64,000 bases of DNA, taken from the NCBI GenBank assembly GCA_021812985.1, contig JAKAMG010000001.1, positions 62,001-126,000 of the forward strand, written 5' to 3'. Below, one piece after another: positions 6,398 through 64,000 of the stretch (its first letter is position 1; the number at the start of each line of letters is the position of its first letter). The translations under genes and the position numbers were made by a program. The notes under the pieces are model-generated. The model was not told the origin of the DNA and made no database searches. It saw nothing but the letters and a program-made list of their open reading frames with translations. The stretch is from Bacteroidota bacterium. Lineage in GTDB: Bacteria > Bacteroidota > Ignavibacteria > Kryptoniales > JAKASW01.

Positions 6398-8959
6398 ATG
6401 AAAGATTTTTCAATGAACCTTCACACGAATGGGACGGCAAGAATGAAAACTCGTGGAACCGCGGGCCTGACGAGGGCTCTCTTTGTGATACTTCTGGTAT
6501 CCTTCTTCATCAAACCGGGCTTCGCTCAAGAGGGAATTAAATTCCTCGACCGCGGCCTGTTCCTAAAAATTCCCGACAGGACGATGGGTGATATGGATCC
6601 TGTGATGCAGCGGCTCATGGCCGGGGAGCGACTCGACGCGGAGAAGGGAGACAAGGTCTCCTTCCAGAACGGCAAGACCGAAGCCTGGGAGGAAGACACT
6701 GCCAATGGCGACCACTGGTTCAAGGGAAAATCGCTGAGGGGCGGGTACGCTCTCTTCGTGGTTAATTCCGAAAAAGAGCAGACGGCGATCCTCGAGGGCT
6801 ACAGCAATGATATGGTTTACGTGAACGGCGTCCCGCGTGAAGGAAACAAGTATGGCTACAAGGACACATACCCTGTGTGGGAAGCGTCATTCAATTACTC
6901 GAGGATTCCGATCGAACTCAGGAAAGGGCGAAACGAACTCCTCTTTGTCTGTTACCGGGGTCTCCTAAAGGCGGGGCTAAGTACGATCAAACCTCAGGTC
7001 CTGTTCAATACCGCCGACGTAACGGCTCCCAATTTCCTCGTCGGGGAGAAGATTGACTACTACGCGTCTGTCGTCGTCATCAACGCGACTGAGAAGCCTC
7101 TCGAGGGAGCGTATCTTCGCGCAGAAGGCCCATCAGGAGTTACAGGCGAAGGGAAGGTTCCCCTCATTCAGCCGATGAGCCTCAGGAAGGTCGCGTTCAA
7201 GCTGCGCGGTCCGGCTCCTACCTCGACCGATTCCGTAACGATTAAGCTTCAGATCCTTTCAGGTTCGAATAGCGATGCAAAAGAACTCGCGTCCGGCAGC
7301 TTCGACGTCGAAACCGTCCCTCCGACGGCGGTGCACAACGTGACGTTCGTGAGCGACATAGATGGAAGCATCCAGTACTACGCTGTTGTGCCGCCGCGCG
7401 GTCCGGACAACGGCAAGCCGAAGGCCCTCTTCTTGTCTCTCCACGGCGCGGATGTTATCGCCACAAACATGGCAAAGTCATACTACCCCAAGACATGGGG
7501 GTACATCGTCTGCCCGACAAACGGCGGACCTTACGGCTTTGACTGGGAGGACTGGGGAAGGATGAATGCTCTCCAGGTTCTGAATATTGCCAAGTCGACG
7601 TACAACATAGACCCCAATCGCATTTATCTGACGGGGCATTCGATGGGAGGGCACGGAACTGAAATCAACGGAGCCACCTACCCCGACCAGTTCGCCGCCA
7701 TAGGGGCCAGCGCCGGCTGGGTGACATGGTGGACCTACGTGTTCCATCATGATACACTTTCTTCTCCGATGAGCGATATGTTCCGGCGTGCCACCATGCC
7801 TCTCAACACTTACGCCCTGAAGTACAACTATAAACAACTCGGATTCTACATACTTCACGGAAGCGTGGACGACAACGTGCCCACGACTGAGTCGCTTCAC
7901 CTTGTGGACACGCTGAAGACTTTCGACAAGGATTTCACGTTCCACGAGCAGATGGGGGTCGGCCACTGGTGGAGTCTAAACGACCAGGCAGGGGCTGATT
8001 GCGTCGACTGGCCGCCGATGTTCGACTTCTTCGCGAGGCACGCCAGACCTGAGAAGTCGAGGATACTTGACATCGATTTCACGACGGCGAGCCCGGGTGT
8101 TTCCGCAAGTGATTACTGGCTCACGATCTATACACAGGAAAGACAACTCGAACCAAGCAGGGCCCAGGTCCGGTTCATACCTTCAAGAAACAAGTTCGTA
8201 GGCACGACGGAAAACATAAGGACCCTTTCGCTCGATCTTTCAATCGCCAATACTTCCGAAAAGTTTGTTGTGGACCTGGATGGGACGAACCTGGATAGCG
8301 TCCTGGTGGCCCCGGGGACCGACAGGCTTTGGCTGACGAAGGCGGATGGCAAGTGGGAGGCGGTCTCGGCACCCCCCTCCGGCGATAAGGATCCTGCGAG
8401 GTACGGAACATTCAAGGACGCTTTCCGCAACGATGTGGTCTTCGTCTACGGCACCCACGGTTCCAAAGATGAGAACAAGTGGGCGTTCGATAAGGCAAGG
8501 TTCGACGCGGAGTTCTTCTGGTACCAGGGCAACGGGTCCATCGATGTGGTTAGCGACAGGGAGTTCGATCCCACGGCCTGCGCCGACAGAAACGTTATCC
8601 TTTACGGCAACGAAGAGACCAACTCTGCCTGGGATAAAGTACTCGACAAGACGCCAGTTGACGTAAGGAATGACAGGATCGTGTTCGGCAATAAGGTCAT
8701 GAAAGGTTCTGACCTGGCATGTTTCATGGTCAGGCCTAAGAAGGGGAGCACGACCCTTAGTGTCGGTGTGGTGAGCGGCACCGGAATAAAAGGTATGAGG
8801 ATGACCTATGCGGTCCCGTATCTCCAGCCCGGCTTCGCGCTTCCTGATGTCACGGTACTTGACGGGAAGGAAGTGAACAAAGGGATGTTCGGCGCCAAGG
8901 TCGCCGGATTCTTTGGCCTTGACTGGTCATTGGACAACGCGGATCTGGTCTGGCGGTGA
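6398..8959 (+). CDS. Exported alpha/beta-hydrolase (prolyl oligopeptidase-like esterase or peptidase)
   Basis: An 853-residue exported protein. The signal peptide is best seen from the internal Met at 6443 (MKTRGTAGLTRALFVILLVSFF, ending GFA|Q), so 6443 is an alternative start; neither start has a clear Shine-Dalgarno. Residues about 30-310 are beta-rich. Residues about 320-560 form an alpha/beta hydrolase with LTGHSMGGHG, nucleophile S415, and a probable catalytic His in MGVGHWWS. The C-terminal 290 residues are not recognised. The family holds S9-type peptidases and carbohydrate esterases. Being 20 bases after GH92 suggests co-transcription and a role on glycan or glycopeptide substrates, such as removing acyl groups. 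That role is an inference. Confidence 0.8.
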   Translation: MKDFSMNLHTNGTARMKTRGTAGLTRALFVILLVSFFIKPGFAQEGIKFLDRGLFLKIPDRTMGDMDPVMQRLMAGERLDAEKGDKVSFQNGKTEAWEEDTANGDHWFKGKSLRGGYALFVVNSEKEQTAILEGYSNDMVYVNGVPREGNKYGYKDTYPVWEASFNYSRIPIELRKGRNELLFVCYRGLLKAGLSTIKPQVLFNTADVTAPNFLVGEKIDYYASVVVINATEKPLEGAYLRAEGPSGVTGEGKVPLIQPMSLRKVAFKLRGPAPTSTDSVTIKLQILSGSNSDAKELASGSFDVETVPPTAVHNVTFVSDIDGSIQYYAVVPPRGPDNGKPKALFLSLHGADVIATNMAKSYYPKTWGYIVCPTNGGPYGFDWEDWGRMNALQVLNIAKSTYNIDPNRIYLTGHSMGGHGTEINGATYPDQFAAIGASAGWVTWWTYVFHHDTLSSPMSDMFRRATMPLNTYALKYNYKQLGFYILHGSVDDNVPTTESLHLVDTLKTFDKDFTFHEQMGVGHWWSLNDQAGADCVDWPPMFDFFARHARPEKSRILDIDFTTASPGVSASDYWLTIYTQERQLEPSRAQVRFIPSRNKFVGTTENIRTLSLDLSIANTSEKFVVDLDGTNLDSVLVAPGTDRLWLTKADGKWEAVSAPPSGDKDPARYGTFKDAFRNDVVFVYGTHGSKDENKWAFDKARFDAEFFWYQGNGSIDVVSDREFDPTACADRNVILYGNEETNSAWDKVLDKTPVDVRNDRIVFGNKVMKGSDLACFMVRPKKGSTTLSVGVVSGTGIKGMRMTYAVPYLQPGFALPDVTVLDGKEVNKGMFGAKVAGFFGLDWSLDNADLVWR

Positions 8960-58488: not shown

Positions 58489-58641
58489 AATCGGAAGACT
58501 GTGCCAAGTGTGAGTCTGATCCGTTTCGGACACTGCATGGAGGCGAAACTTTCTGCAAGGAATTAGAGTCAATATAACCGGACCCTGACGCGACCCGCGG
58601 AGTCGTTGGGACGGCTTTAAGCAAACATGACGGAGCATACA

Positions 58642-61308
58642 ATGAGAAGTATCAAAACCTTGATGTCACTTTTGTCCTCCCTGGTCTTGTTGATGAATGT
58701 TGCTCTGGCTCAGAGCAATGACGATGCCCTCGTAAGCAGATCGAAGGGGAAGGAGAACGTGATGGAATTCGACGAGCCGGGAAGCGAGAACGTGCTAAAC
58801 CGGCAATTGTGGGAATATGCGAAGGGTACTTCCTACAAGTCAGTCGAGGCCTACGTGGCGAAAAAGCAGGCTGAGTCGCGCGCTTCAATGTCGGATGAAG
58901 TCGAGCTTCCGACGGGTTGGAGGATCAGCCCCGCGGGACGGCAAATACCGGTCGGCCATTTCCCTTACGAGGCCATCATCTATGAGGGGAAGCTGGTCGT
59001 CCTCAATACGGGCTATTACGAGTCCAACGCGGGTAATCCGGCCGAAGACTCTCTCACGCCGCGGGGGATATCGATTATAGACCCGGCTAAGGGGAAAATC
59101 GAGAAGAGCTTCGCGTTGAATGATGTCTTTCCGAGCGCTGTCATCGGAAAGGACGGCGACCTATACGTTAGCGGCGGGTTTGACTCCACCGTCGACAGGT
59201 TTGGACCGGATTTCTCGCTCAAGCGCGTGTTTAAGCTCCGCGGCTACACCGCCGGTATCACACCGGTCGACGCGCATCATCTTGCAGTCCTTTATCTCGT
59301 CACGACCGATACCTCCGTCACTCCCCGCGATCCTTTCGGTAACGGACACTACGTGAAGGGGGGGATAGCTCTCCTGAACCTCACGACTGGGCGGATAGAC
59401 AGGGACGCTGTCGTCGGTTATTTCCCCTACGCTGTCCAGTACGCAGATGGTAAGCTGTTCGTCAGTGTCCTGGGTGAAGGCAAGGTAAATGTTTACGATA
59501 CACGTTTTCGGGAATTGAAATCTATAGAGGTCGGGACTGCACCCGCGGACATCTTGCTTGACGGCGGTGACCTGTATGTTGTGAACACGACTTCGGACGA
59601 GATAAGCGTGATTAACGCAAAGAGTGAGAGAGTTGTCCGGAGAATTTTCGTTGGGAAGAAGGGATATAATTCAGGAGTCTCCCCGACATCCTGTGCGGTC
59701 AGCGGAGGTAACCTGTATGTAAGCGAGGCGACACTGAACGCGGTCGCAGTATACAACCTGGCCGACGGGAGGCTTCTCGGATACATACCGACAGGATGGT
59801 ACACGACCAAGGTGCTCGCGGACAAGAGTAATCTCTACTTTCTCAGCGCCAAGGGGATACTTCCAAGGCGTCCCAATCCGAACGGTCCTTCTCCGGTCGT
59901 CGAAGGTCACAGGGAAGATTATGTGCTTAATCTTCTGCGTGGTACGGCGGGAATTGTTCCGCTAAGTTCGGTCGAGAAAAATCTGAAGGAATGGACGACG
60001 CAGGTTGAGAACGGATCACCGGTCTACAGCGGTAGCGAGGGGCTGAAGCTTCCGATCAAGCACGTGTTCTATATCATAAAGGAAAATCGTTCCTACGACC
60101 AGGTGCTTGGAGATCTTGGCAGGGGAAACGGTGATTCAAGCCTTACTATTTTCGGCAGGGGAGTAACCCCGAACATCCATAAACTTGCGACTGACTTCGT
60201 GGACCTCGATAATTTTTACGCCGATGGCGAGATCAGCGTGCTCGGTCATAGCTTCACGACCAGCGGGTATGCTAGCCCCTTCCTGGAATGGCTCGGGAAT
60301 GCGGCGTACAGCGGGAGATACAGAGGCTATCCGTTTGGCACGGTCCCGGCGGTCTTCTCGAAAACCTATATATGGGACGCCCTCGATGCCAAGGGGGTCG
60401 ACTACAAGATTTTTGGCGAACCGTACTATCTCATGACGGCCGCTTACAAGGTCATAGACAAATTCTACGGGGCAAACAGCGAACTGGCGCGCAAATTCTA
60501 CGCGAACAGCATGGCCCTCGCGGGGGAGGTCGACCGCGGAGCCGAATTCAGCGAGTTCGTCCAGTCGTACTATGGCAAAGCGAATACGCCTCAGGACGCG
60601 TTTACCCTTCTGGGGAACAGCGTCTTCACCAACGGACTTTCCAGAATATTCACGGGAGGCCCGGCTCTCGGCGACGCATTGAAGGAGAACGTGAAGTTTC
60701 GAAGAGCCTTTGCTACCTTCCTGTACCATTACTCGTTCAGCTACTGGACCTGGGACCTCTGGTATTCAGATCTGCACAGGTTCACGGACTGGAAGGAGGA
60801 TTTTGACCACCAACTGAAATCCGGTAACGTCGTGCCGTTCGAATATATCTGGCTCCCGAACGATCACACCGGGGGGCTCAACAGAAATTACCAGAACCCG
60901 TACCAGCTTGTGGCCGAGAACGACATCTCGCTTGGACTCATCGTGGAGACGATCGCCAACAGCCCGATCTGGAAGAACAGCCTCATACTCGTTGAGGAAG
61001 ATGACGCCCAGAACGGACCCGACCATGTAGACGCGACGAGAACGGAAGCTCTCGCCATTGGACCTTACGTGAAACGCGGGGCGGTGGTACACGACAGGTA
61101 TGACCAGCTGAGTATGCTCCGAACTGTGGAATTGATTCTGGGACTTAATCCATTGAACTTTGACGACGCGATGGCGGTCCCGATGTTCGGCGTGTTTTCG
61201 TCCAGACCGGATTTCAGTAAGTATGTTGCAGCGCCGGCGTCTGACAGCCTGTCAGCTTCAGACAAATTCATCCTTGAAGGAATCACCAAATCGGCAGAGG
61301 AGAAGTAA
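58642..61308 (+). CDS. Exported YncE-like propeller fused to a phosphoesterase domain
   Basis: 888 residues, signal peptide ending ALA|Q. A YncE-type seven-bladed propeller (about 75-435; [33 protein letters not shown]) is followed by an alkaline phosphatase-superfamily phosphoesterase domain (about 450-850) opening [20 protein letters not shown], with [20 protein letters not shown] near the end supplying likely metal ligands. Similar fusions are common in Bacteroidota and related groups; the substrate is unknown. GGAG lies 7 bases before the ATG at 58642; an ATG at 58627 is an alternative. The stop overlaps deoC. Confidence 0.87.
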
Positions 61309-62003: not shown

Positions 62004-62502
62004 CAGTCAAAGTGCTTCCCGATAGAATTTTAGTTTAAAATTTAATTATCCACGGCGCCAACCTACTAGGCTTGGCGCCTCTCTCACCCCAAATCCGCTG
62101 AAATATTCAGCAAGTCGTGCTGAGATTTGCAACAGCGTTAACCCTCAATAAGTAGCCCGTCTATAAGTAGATTCAACAGCTTTCCCAAGTTGGCTGTAGA
62201 GTCATTCAACAGTGTGCCGCATACGGTCAATTGTATGCGGCTCCCTCCGTCGGAGCCCTGACGTAATTCATTGAAGCGTTGATGGTTATGCCGTCAATAA
62301 TAATAGCGGGTTCTGCCTGGTTTGGAACGCGTATTGATCTCTATTAGAAAGAAAGCTTGAACAAAAATATGAATGAGAAGATGTCAAAGGAGTACGGCAA
62401 ACTGAACGCTCCTCGATTTTCGGGGAGCCAAGGATACGCTTAAGACGCATCGTCGGTTCGGAATACTCCCGCGATTTTCTGCAAAACACCAGGAGGTAAA
62501 AA
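62004..62502. other. Intergenic region between deoC and the GcvH-like gene
   Basis: 499 bases, AT-rich in its first part. It contains the hairpin at 62054-62079 and, in the probable leader of the next unit, a stem GCTCCTCGA (62408-62416), loop TTT, TCGGGGAGC (62420-62428). No protein-coding frame or tRNA was seen, and no clear promoter could be fixed by eye. Confidence 0.45.
62054..62079 (+). terminator. Hairpin after deoC
   Basis: GGCGCCAA (62054-62061), loop of 10, TTGGCGCC (62072-62079): a perfect 8-pair stem, followed by TCTCTC rather than an unbroken U-run. It probably ends the transcript of the phosphoesterase and deoC genes. Confidence 0.55.
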
Positions 62503-63210
62503 ATGGTAGCGTTATTTGTGGTTGCGACGATAATTGTTTTTTTAGTCGCCGATTATTTCGTCCAACGCGCAGCCAAAAGAAAGGCAGCGCTTTCTCCAGT
62601 CCCGACGCTCGCTCAGAAACCGAGATTCATCATACCAAAGGGGTACTTCTTCGGCAAGGGGCACACGTGGGTCGAACTCCTTCCCGACGGCTCAACGAGG
62701 GTCGGCCTTGATGACTTCGTCCAGAAGATACTTGGTCCGGTAGGCGAGATTGCCCTCGTCTCTTCGGGCGAATATGTCAAGCGGGGCGACAAGTTGTTCC
62801 TCGTGAGGCAGGAGGGGAAGGAGATGGCGTTCCGCGCGCCGGTGTCAGGAAGGGTAATAGCGTTCAACGAAGAGCTCAAGCACTCGCCCGAGGCGGTCAG
62901 GCGTGAGCCATACAGAGCGGGATGGATAGCGATGATTGAGCCGACTGACATCGCGACGGAAATAAAACAGCTCTCAATTGGCAACGATGCCGCGTTGTGG
63001 CTCAGGGACGAAATCAAGAGATTCAGAAACTTCATCACGGAACAGGTTCGCGCTCTCGCTCCTGTTGGTTCTCCTTCGCTCGCCGGGGTGACACTCATGG
63101 ACGGTGGCATACCGGTTAATGATGTCATGGAACACTCTCCACAGGAAATATGGCGGAATTTCGAGAACGATTTCCTCGCGTCTGACAAAAAAGCCAAGAC
63201 GGACTTTTAG
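62503..63210 (+). CDS. Membrane-anchored GcvH-like protein lacking the usual lipoyl lysine
   Basis: 235 residues: an N-terminal membrane helix (about 2-20; VALFVVATIIVFLVADYFV), a glycine-cleavage H-like fold (about 45-150; GKGHTWVELLPDGSTRVGLD, APVSGRVIAFNEEL, REPYRAGWIAMIEPTD) and an extra C-terminal region of about 80 residues. In H proteins the lipoylated Lys lies seven residues before the APVSG alanine. Here that place is G105, with K106 next to it, so lipoylation is doubtful. It precedes a HybA-like ferredoxin by 26 bases, suggesting a membrane redox complex rather than glycine cleavage. AGGAGG precedes the ATG. Confidence 0.85.
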   Translation: MVALFVVATIIVFLVADYFVQRAAKRKAALSPVPTLAQKPRFIIPKGYFFGKGHTWVELLPDGSTRVGLDDFVQKILGPVGEIALVSSGEYVKRGDKLFLVRQEGKEMAFRAPVSGRVIAFNEELKHSPEAVRREPYRAGWIAMIEPTDIATEIKQLSIGNDAALWLRDEIKRFRNFITEQVRALAPVGSPSLAGVTLMDGGIPVNDVMEHSPQEIWRNFENDFLASDKKAKTDF

Positions 63211-63236
63211 CAGCTAACTGAAAAAGGAGAACCGTG

Positions 63237-64000
63237 ATGAAGAAGCAATCAGGAATATTAGTCGATACGACCCTTTGCGTCGGGTGCATGTCGTGCGAGG
63301 AGGCATGCGCCGACAGATGGGGGTTCCCCAAAACCGATGTCCACGAACTTACATGCGAGAAGAACACCGTCGTGCAGCAGTACGGAGACACCTATGTCCC
63401 GCGTCTCTGCATGCACTGCGAGGACCCGACATGCGCTTCGGTGTGCCCCGTCGGTGCACTGCATAAGACCGCAGAGGGCCCTGTCGTCTACGACGCAGAC
63501 AAATGCATAGGTTGCCGCTACTGCATGCAGGCATGTCCCTTCCAGATACCTAAGTACCAGTGGAACAAGGCCAACCCGAAGGTCACCAAGTGCGACATGT
63601 GCTTTGACCGGCAGCAGGAGGGCAAGCAGCCTGCTTGCGTGGAAGCATGCCCGGCACAGGCCAGAATATTCGGATGCAGGGACGACTTGATCGAAATCGC
63701 GAGGAAACGCGTGGGCGATAACCCGGGCGGTTATGTCCACCACGTTTTTGGCACTACCGAGATTGGGGGGACCTCAACCATGTATCTCGCGGGGGTGGAT
63801 TTCCCGAAGCTTGGATTCCCGTCGAACTTGCCGAAACGGGCCCTGCCGCAGTACACGATGGACATCATGGAGAAGATTCCGGACTACTTCGTCTGGGGAA
63901 GCACGATGATGGCTGGCTTCTGGTGGCTTACGAACAGGAAGAAGAAGGTCGCGGAGTACGAGAGAGATATGAAGCGCGACCGATCGCAAGACGACACTCA
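63237..64000 (+). CDS. HybA/FdnH-like ferredoxin with four [4Fe-4S] motifs (cut by window edge)
   Basis: The frame is open from an ATG at 63237 to the window end, at least 254 codons. Cysteine groups are CVGCMSCEEAC (from residue 14), CMHCEDPTCASVCP, CIGCRYCMQACP and CDMC..CVEACP, the four-cluster pattern of electron-transfer subunits of formate dehydrogenase and hydrogenase complexes. A membrane-like segment (DYFVWGSTMMAGFWWLT) near 220-235 resembles the C-terminal anchor of HybA/FdnH. An NrfD-type or catalytic subunit would be expected next, outside the window. AAAAAGGAGA precedes the start; a GTG one codon earlier is an alternative. Confidence 0.88.
   Translation, partial: MKKQSGILVDTTLCVGCMSCEEACADRWGFPKTDVHELTCEKNTVVQQYGDTYVPRLCMHCEDPTCASVCPVGALHKTAEGPVVYDADKCIGCRYCMQACPFQIPKYQWNKANPKVTKCDMCFDRQQEGKQPACVEACPAQARIFGCRDDLIEIARKRVGDNPGGYVHHVFGTTEIGGTSTMYLAGVDFPKLGFPSNLPKRALPQYTMDIMEKIPDYFVWGSTMMAGFWWLTNRKKKVAEYERDMKRDRSQDDT

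What the first reader, a model, noticed from the sequence alone, without database searches (positions are those of the whole stretch)
62503..64000. Membrane-anchored GcvH-like protein without the lipoyl lysine beside a HybA-like ferredoxin
The H-protein fold is clear, but the position of the lipoylated Lys is Gly (G105), a membrane helix leads the protein, and about 80 extra residues follow. The next gene encodes a four-cluster ferredoxin with a C-terminal membrane segment. This suggests the GcvH fold has been reused as a structural or electron-transfer part of a membrane oxidoreductase. I know of no assigned function for such a pair.
Basis: partly seen in the sequence, partly recalled or inferred. 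Interest (0 to 1): 0.62.

Follow-up and report, generated by a model that had tools for sequence, protein, structure and literature searches.

The report
Lipoate-free GcvH partner of quinone complexes
A protein that looks like the glycine-cleavage H protein but cannot carry lipoate heads a widely conserved gene cluster that couples a respiratory quinone complex to a heme-sensing two-component system, so it is probably a regulator or adaptor of respiration that has not been described.

Summary
Window 62503-63210 encodes a membrane helix, a true GcvH fold with Gly at the lipoyl-lysine position, and a conserved tail. Next comes a four-cluster HybA/HmcB-like ferredoxin.

Beyond the window the operon continues: HybB/HmcC-like NrfD quinone subunit, a second lipoate-free GcvH with a four-Cys motif, a histidine kinase with two heme-c motifs, a sigma54-type response regulator and an archaemetzincin. 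There is no hydrogenase, molybdopterin or gcvP/gcvT gene. The layout recurs across about ten phyla; lysine stands at the lipoyl column in only 18 of 140 domains. A related module accompanies QrcABCD.

In one lineage both GcvH-like proteins are fused to intact receiver domains directly behind the kinase. Those forms lack the usual G-x-T-L-x-D-G-G tail, and their genomes lack archaemetzincin (0 of 13, against 17 of 17 genomes with the tailed form, in genomes picked without knowing this).

Best reading: a phospho-regulated adaptor or regulator of an NrfD-type quinone oxidoreductase. No publication describing the system was found. Function is inferred, not shown.

The parts
62503..63210 (+). GcvHa: membrane-anchored GcvH-like protein, 235 aa
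62506..62592 (+). N-terminal membrane helix (residues 2-30, MVALFVVATIIVF...; positive residues after it suggest the GcvH domain is cytoplasmic)
   Evidence: model; conserved MVA[LI]FV start; orientation by the positive-inside rule is inference
62632..62973 (+). GcvH domain (residues 44-157)
62815..62817 (+). G105, at the position of the lipoylated lysine
   Evidence: pairwise alignments; family column
63085..63108 (+). Tail motif GVTLMDGG (residues 195-202), shared with GcvHb and with small TM proteins of related loci
63234..64000 (+). HybA/HmcB-like four-cluster ferredoxin without a Tat signal, with a C-terminal hydrophobic helix; continues to 64016 outside the window
62004..62502 (+). Non-coding stretch between deoC and the operon; no sigma54-type promoter found here although the operon encodes a sigma54-type regulator

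Best explanation
GcvHa and its partner GcvHb are a lipoate-free branch of the H-protein fold that acts as a regulatory adaptor of an NrfD-family quinone oxidoreductase (HybA-HybB, Hmc-like). Proposed working: (1) HybB exchanges electrons between quinone and the HybA clusters and takes up protons from the cytoplasm (inferred from conserved residues). (2) A histidine kinase with a di-heme-type periplasmic sensor reads the redox state of the periplasm or of c-type cytochromes (inferred). (3) Its signal reaches the GcvH pair at the cytoplasmic face. In the Ignavibacteria-type version this is direct, because both GcvH proteins carry an intact receiver domain. In the window's version it goes through a separate sigma54-type response regulator, with an archaemetzincin that may act on the DGG tail of the GcvH proteins. 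(4) The GcvH domain docks on the complex and gates or assembles it. Shown by sequence: gene content, missing lysine, fold, fusions, conserved HybB residues, mutual exclusion of receiver domain and DGG tail plus archaemetzincin. Inferred: kinase signal, direction of electron flow, docking, effect on activity, and proteolysis.
For: Operon GcvHa-HybA-HybB-GcvHb-HK-RR-AMZ, recurring in 75 distinct GcvH-like loci, many on partial contigs: HybA 56, HybB 56, HK 54, RR 42, AMZ 40. Hosts include Kryptoniota, Ignavibacteriota, Chlorobiota, Bacteroidota, NC10, Poribacteria, Schekmanbacteria, Neomarinimicrobiota, Gemmatimonadota, Acidobacteriota and Myxococcota. Lys at the lipoyl column in 18 of 140 domains. 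Receiver-GcvH and TM-receiver-GcvH sit directly after the kinase; all 16 have the acidic pair, phospho-Asp, Thr/Ser and Lys. They form two separate clades in the tree, so both members of the pair carry a receiver. A PstS-like domain-TM-GcvH fusion occurs in Prolixibacteraceae. Kinase sensor: CXXCH in 56 and CX4CH in 55 of 59. Archaemetzincin tracks the DGG-type GcvH: 47 both, 2 and 3 one only, 48 neither among 100 relatives. In genomes chosen without knowing it: 17 of 17 with DGG type, 0 of 13 with only receiver-GcvH. Sigma54 promoters upstream in 14 of 51 loci at p<0.05, and a perfect one upstream of the second GcvH locus of the same genome. HybB keeps E. coli HybB quinone-site and proton-path residues D58, S129, Y99, Y141, E148, H184 in 60 of 60. 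A GcvH/HK/RR/AMZ set also accompanies QrcABCD.
Against: No direct evidence of binding, phosphorylation or an effect on activity. GcvHa in the window has no receiver itself, so the phospho-signal is transferred by analogy from a relative. Some loci have HybA or HybAB plus GcvH without a linked kinase (L157, L060, L108), though several such loci lie on partial contigs. The window operon has no recognisable sigma54 site. Gene neighbourhood cannot separate a regulatory from a structural subunit. The genomes sampled are related, so counts overstate independence.
Confidence: 0.45

Rival explanations
1. Structural or assembly subunits: the GcvH-like proteins are fixed parts of the oxidoreductase that hold HybA on the cytoplasmic face of HybB, with no signalling role; kinase and regulator only control transcription of the operon.
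For: GcvHa and GcvHb flank hybA-hybB in most loci. HybA of the window type has no Tat signal, so an extra cytoplasmic anchor would make sense. Sigma54 sites upstream of some operons fit purely transcriptional control. A Fer2-Fer4-GcvH fusion lies beside NuoE/NuoF-like genes in L160.
Against: HybAB pairs without GcvH exist, one with a 74%-identical HybB. The fusions to receiver and PstS-like domains are not expected of a passive subunit. GcvHc39 sits beside the kinase system without HybAB in the window's own genome.
Confidence: 0.33
2. Electron carriers: the GcvH pair passes electrons, using the four-Cys motif of GcvHb (C-x-W-x2-A-G-x3-Y-K-x-C-x4-C-x2-C) as a metal or Fe-S site.
For: The motif occurs in 35 of 143 GcvH-like proteins, and in L160 it follows Fe-S domains in one polypeptide.
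Against: GcvHa, the finding itself, has no such motif. Several GcvHb relatives lack it (L040, L055, L085, L097). The region is predicted with low confidence.
Confidence: 0.1
3. An ordinary lipoylated H-protein in which K106 takes the lipoyl group.
For: K106 is next to the canonical position and the fold is right.
Against: Position +1 is Arg 40, Lys 36, Gly 28 and others in 140 domains, and the E-S-x-K context is missing. The genome has its own intact GcvH. No gcvP/gcvT neighbours.
Confidence: 0.02
4. Proteolytic switch: the archaemetzincin cleaves or binds the G-x-T-[LM]-x-D-G-G tail, and this, not the GcvH domain, is the regulated element.
For: The tail is shared by GcvHa, GcvHb and 77-140 aa TM proteins without a GcvH domain in three C39-type loci, plus a longer ORF with the same end in L073. 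The metalloprotease is present where the tail is and absent where receiver-GcvH replaces it. Its active-site motif is intact in 39 of 40.
Against: Operon linkage alone could produce the correlation; substrate preference was not tested. G105 (Schekmanbacteria) has GcvH-like genes but no archaemetzincin.
Confidence: 0.1

Closest known systems
Glycine cleavage H-protein (GcvH)
   Same: Fold and H-x-W, G-x-D, P-V-S-G core; TM-score 0.89 to E. coli H-protein
   Different: No lipoyl lysine, added membrane helix, conserved DGG tail, no gcvP/gcvT; scores 58 against a cut-off of 116
LbpA lipoate-binding proteins of the sHdr pathway (PMC6067878)
   Same: GcvH-like proteins recruited to a redox enzyme system
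   Different: All 95 LbpA in that study keep the lysine; here it is absent and no hdr genes are nearby
HybAB of hydrogenase-2 and HmcBC of the Hmc complex
   Same: Ferredoxin and NrfD-type subunit with conserved quinone-site and proton-path residues
   Different: No HybO/HybC or HmcA; HybA of the window type lacks the Tat signal; GcvH pair, kinase, regulator and protease added
QrcABCD menaquinone reductase (PMC6303296)
   Same: Related NrfD module; in L073 a Qrc operon carries the same GcvH/kinase/regulator/archaemetzincin set
   Different: The window operon has no QrcA or QrcB-like genes and this genome has no QrcD over cut-off
NqrA/RnfC barrel-sandwich hybrid domains
   Same: Non-lipoylated carrier-like fold used in a respiratory complex; weak NQRA_N hit to GcvHa, 20 bits against a cut-off of 25; RnfC from general knowledge
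   Different: GcvHa is a full H-protein fold, not only the hairpin region; no Nqr/Rnf genes in the operon

Membership tests
Glycine cleavage H-protein | H-protein fold | tested here: met
Glycine cleavage H-protein | Lipoyl-accepting lysine | tested here: not met
   G105 in the window; K in 18 of 140 relatives
Glycine cleavage H-protein | Score over the curated equivalog cut-off | tested here: not met
   TIGR00527 58.4 bits, cut-off 115.85
Glycine cleavage H-protein | Linked P, T or L protein genes | tested here: not met
LbpA (sHdr lipoate-binding protein) | Conserved lysine, hdr-like gene neighbourhood | tested here: not met
   family definition from PMC6067878
GcvH-related protein NF045810 | Score over curated cut-off | tested here: not met
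   36.6 bits against 150
HybAB / HmcBC quinone module | Four-cluster ferredoxin plus NrfD-type subunit with quinone-site residues | tested here: met
HybAB / HmcBC quinone module | Equivalog cut-offs and a catalytic partner (HybOC or HmcA) | tested here: not met
   HmcB 242 of 420, HybA 203 of 263, HmcC 319 of 550 bits; no partner gene in 20 kb
Two-component response regulator | Receiver domain with phospho-acceptor Asp | tested here: not met
   Absent in the window protein; present and intact in 16 relatives with GcvH fusions
Archaemetzincin (the operon's protease) | HExxHxxGxxHC...C-x-M...CxxC | tested here: met
   39 of 40 short motif, 38 of 40 full motif; window-genome copy intact; NF033823 over cut-off
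Di-heme sensor kinase | Covalent heme attachment | not testable with these tools
   Only CXXCH and CX4CH motifs were counted

The most novel reading that the evidence does not exclude
A lipoate-free GcvH domain is a previously unrecognised output domain of two-component signalling that directly gates membrane quinone oxidoreductases: a heme-sensing kinase phosphorylates receiver-GcvH adaptors, or in the window's version an archaemetzincin and a sigma54 regulator act through a DGG tail, to switch respiratory electron flow in about ten bacterial phyla.
Probability: 0.3. Interest if true: 0.85.

Novelty: new variant of a known kind. Interest (0 to 1): 0.62.

Why it matters
Control of respiratory complexes in bacteria is usually described as transcriptional (general knowledge). 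If GcvH-like adaptors gate NrfD-type quinone complexes, this would be a direct route from redox sensing to electron flow, in lineages some of which have large multiheme cytochrome sets. It also gives archaemetzincin, a protease of whose biological importance very little is known (PMC3427221), a gene context and a testable candidate substrate, and it warns that many genes annotated as glycine cleavage H protein are something else.

Tried and rejected
Lipoylation at K106: rejected on family variation. Hydrogenase, molybdopterin or glycine-cleavage partner genes downstream: none. Inverted HybB topology to explain the Tat-less HybA: loop charges give N-in for both HybA types, so no inversion. Sigma54 promoter in front of the window operon: not found. 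PDB relative of HybB by sequence: none. Pfam name for the four-Cys motif of GcvHb: none credible. Literature for GcvH with NrfD, receiver domains, archaemetzincin or Qrc: nothing describing this system; only open-licence papers were searchable.

Full report
Observation. The window protein (62503-63210) has a membrane helix, an H-protein fold and a tail of about 80 residues. Its model matches E. coli H-protein with TM-score 0.89, and the lipoyl lysine aligns with G105. The neighbour at 63234 is a four-cluster ferredoxin, like HmcB/HybA by profile (242 and 203 bits, both below the equivalog cut-offs). The window's genome also has a normal GcvH on another contig with the lysine intact, so this is an extra paralogue, not a degraded H-protein.

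The whole operon. The region right of the window was fetched. Downstream of the ferredoxin come a HybB/HmcC-like NrfD protein (NF045714 319 bits), a second GcvH-like protein with an N-terminal motif CIWAEAGLVSYKLCDRGFECDDCPFD, a histidine kinase with CXXCH and CX4CH in its sensor region, a receiver-sigma54 regulator, and an archaemetzincin over its NCBIfam cut-off. There is no hydrogenase, molybdopterin or glycine-cleavage gene. In HybB the residues named for E. coli HybB as quinone site and proton path (PMC8076601) are largely kept: D58, S129, Y99, Y141, E148 and H184 are identical in 60 of 60 relatives. HybB is therefore expected to be a working quinone subunit.

Distribution. The gene was found in 98 of 100 relatives at E below 0.001, but that count includes ordinary GcvH; the membrane-anchored form (E below 1e-30) is in about half. 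A scan of genome contigs found it in Kryptoniota, Ignavibacteriota, Chlorobiota, Bacteroidota, NC10, Poribacteria, Schekmanbacteria, Neomarinimicrobiota, Gemmatimonadota, Acidobacteriota and Myxococcota. Of 75 distinct GcvH-like loci, many on partial contigs, 56 carry HybA, 56 HybB, 54 the kinase, 42 the sigma54-type regulator and 40 the archaemetzincin; most have two GcvH genes. Converse control: HybA-HybB pairs without GcvH do exist (L164-L166, L172), so GcvH is linked to particular complexes and is not part of every one.

Lipoyl site. Across 140 GcvH-like domains the lipoyl column holds G 34, D 21, K 18, N 17, E 15, S 14 and others. There is no lysine conservation, and the E-S-x-K context is absent. 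The published lipoate-binding LbpA proteins keep the lysine in all 95 cases (PMC6067878), so the family is distinct from them.

Fusions. In Ignavibacteria-type genomes the order is HybA (with Tat signal), HybB, a 13-heme cytochrome, the kinase, then a soluble receiver-GcvH and a TM-receiver-GcvH. Receiver residues are intact in all 16 proteins. In the tree the two receiver forms are separate clades, so both members of the pair carry a receiver. In Prolixibacteraceae the membrane GcvH carries a PstS-like domain in front of the helix. In one genome from the phylum sampled around G100 (L160) a GcvH domain is fused to 2Fe-2S and 4Fe-4S domains beside NuoE/NuoF-like genes (the neighbour names are read from sequence and not profile-tested). 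These fusions tie the GcvH domain both to signalling and to redox enzymes.

Module exchange. GcvHa, GcvHb and small membrane proteins of related loci share the tail motif G-x-T-[LM]-x-D-G-G; receiver-GcvH proteins do not have it. Among 100 relatives 47 genomes have both the DGG-type GcvH and archaemetzincin, 2 only the former, 3 only the latter and 48 neither (Fisher p 5e-22). This table was read from the match lists by hand. Thirty further genomes of the class were taken from the list before their archaemetzincin status was known: 17 of 17 with the short type have it, 0 of 13 with only the receiver type do (p 8e-9). The receiver type was confirmed by reading the sequence in all 13, and the short DGG form was read directly in 7 and, through shorter loci, in most of the remaining 10. 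Within family f10 alone the split is 5 of 5 against 0 of 11. Relatedness means the p values overstate independence. The pattern reads as two versions of one control circuit: receiver domains on the GcvH proteins, or a separate regulator plus archaemetzincin with DGG tails.

Regulation. Near-consensus sigma54 promoters lie upstream of 14 of 51 operons at p<0.05 by base shuffles, with perfect consensus sites in L056, L095 and L157. In the window's genome the main operon has none, while the second GcvH locus (L006) has a perfect site at 8066, upstream of a small DGG protein and GcvHc39. A related GcvH/kinase/regulator/archaemetzincin set accompanies a QrcABCD operon in L073, where QrcA and QrcD pass their cut-offs.

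Mechanism and limits. The best reading is a regulatory adaptor of an NrfD-type quinone oxidoreductase. A structural subunit is the main rival, and neighbourhood data cannot separate the two. The site of contact is inferred: GcvH domains are predicted cytoplasmic, and HybB has the same N-in topology in both HybA types, so the cytoplasmic face of HybB is the only surface available in both. An unexplained point is that HybA of the window type lacks any Tat signal although its tail helix has positive residues after it, as in the exported type.

Known or not. No paper describing such a family was found in the open-licence library. Absence there is not proof of novelty.

Noticed in passing
L006:8066-13112 (same genome, contig C39): Second GcvH-like locus with no HybAB: perfect sigma54 site, small TM protein with a DGG tail, Cys-rich GcvHc39, and a divergent kinase, regulator and archaemetzincin. 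Its relatives in other genomes sit beside QrcABCD genes.
   Followed up: partly
63234-64000 and HybA relatives: HybA splits into a Tat-less type (34 loci, window) and a Tat-bearing type (20 loci), yet HybB topology is the same and the tail charges suggest C-in. How the Tat-less HybA is oriented is unexplained.
   Followed up: partly
L160:7023-8318: GcvH domain fused to 2Fe-2S and 4Fe-4S domains and the four-Cys motif, in a cluster with NuoE/NuoF-like genes (possible bifurcating hydrogenase); gene names not profile-tested.
   Followed up: partly
L099:5031-6722 and similar-length proteins in L098, L100-L102: PstS-like binding domain, membrane helix and GcvH in one protein in Prolixibacteraceae (domain call made on L099 only; the others inferred from length and identity).
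   Followed up: partly
L090:9357-11594, L158:8859-10808, L165:7819-9732: NrfD-type HybB fused to 6 or 10 heme c motifs, in some cases without GcvH genes nearby.
   Followed up: no
58627-61308 and L005:17658-20000: Two similar proteins with repeat-propeller and phosphoesterase-like ends on both sides of the operon; look like paralogues, not analysed.
   Followed up: no
N-terminus of GcvHb (L005:5298-5450): Motif C-x-W-x2-A-G-x3-Y-K-L-C-x4-C-x2-C-P-F-D in 35 of 143 GcvH-like proteins, no Pfam family; possible metal site.
   Followed up: partly
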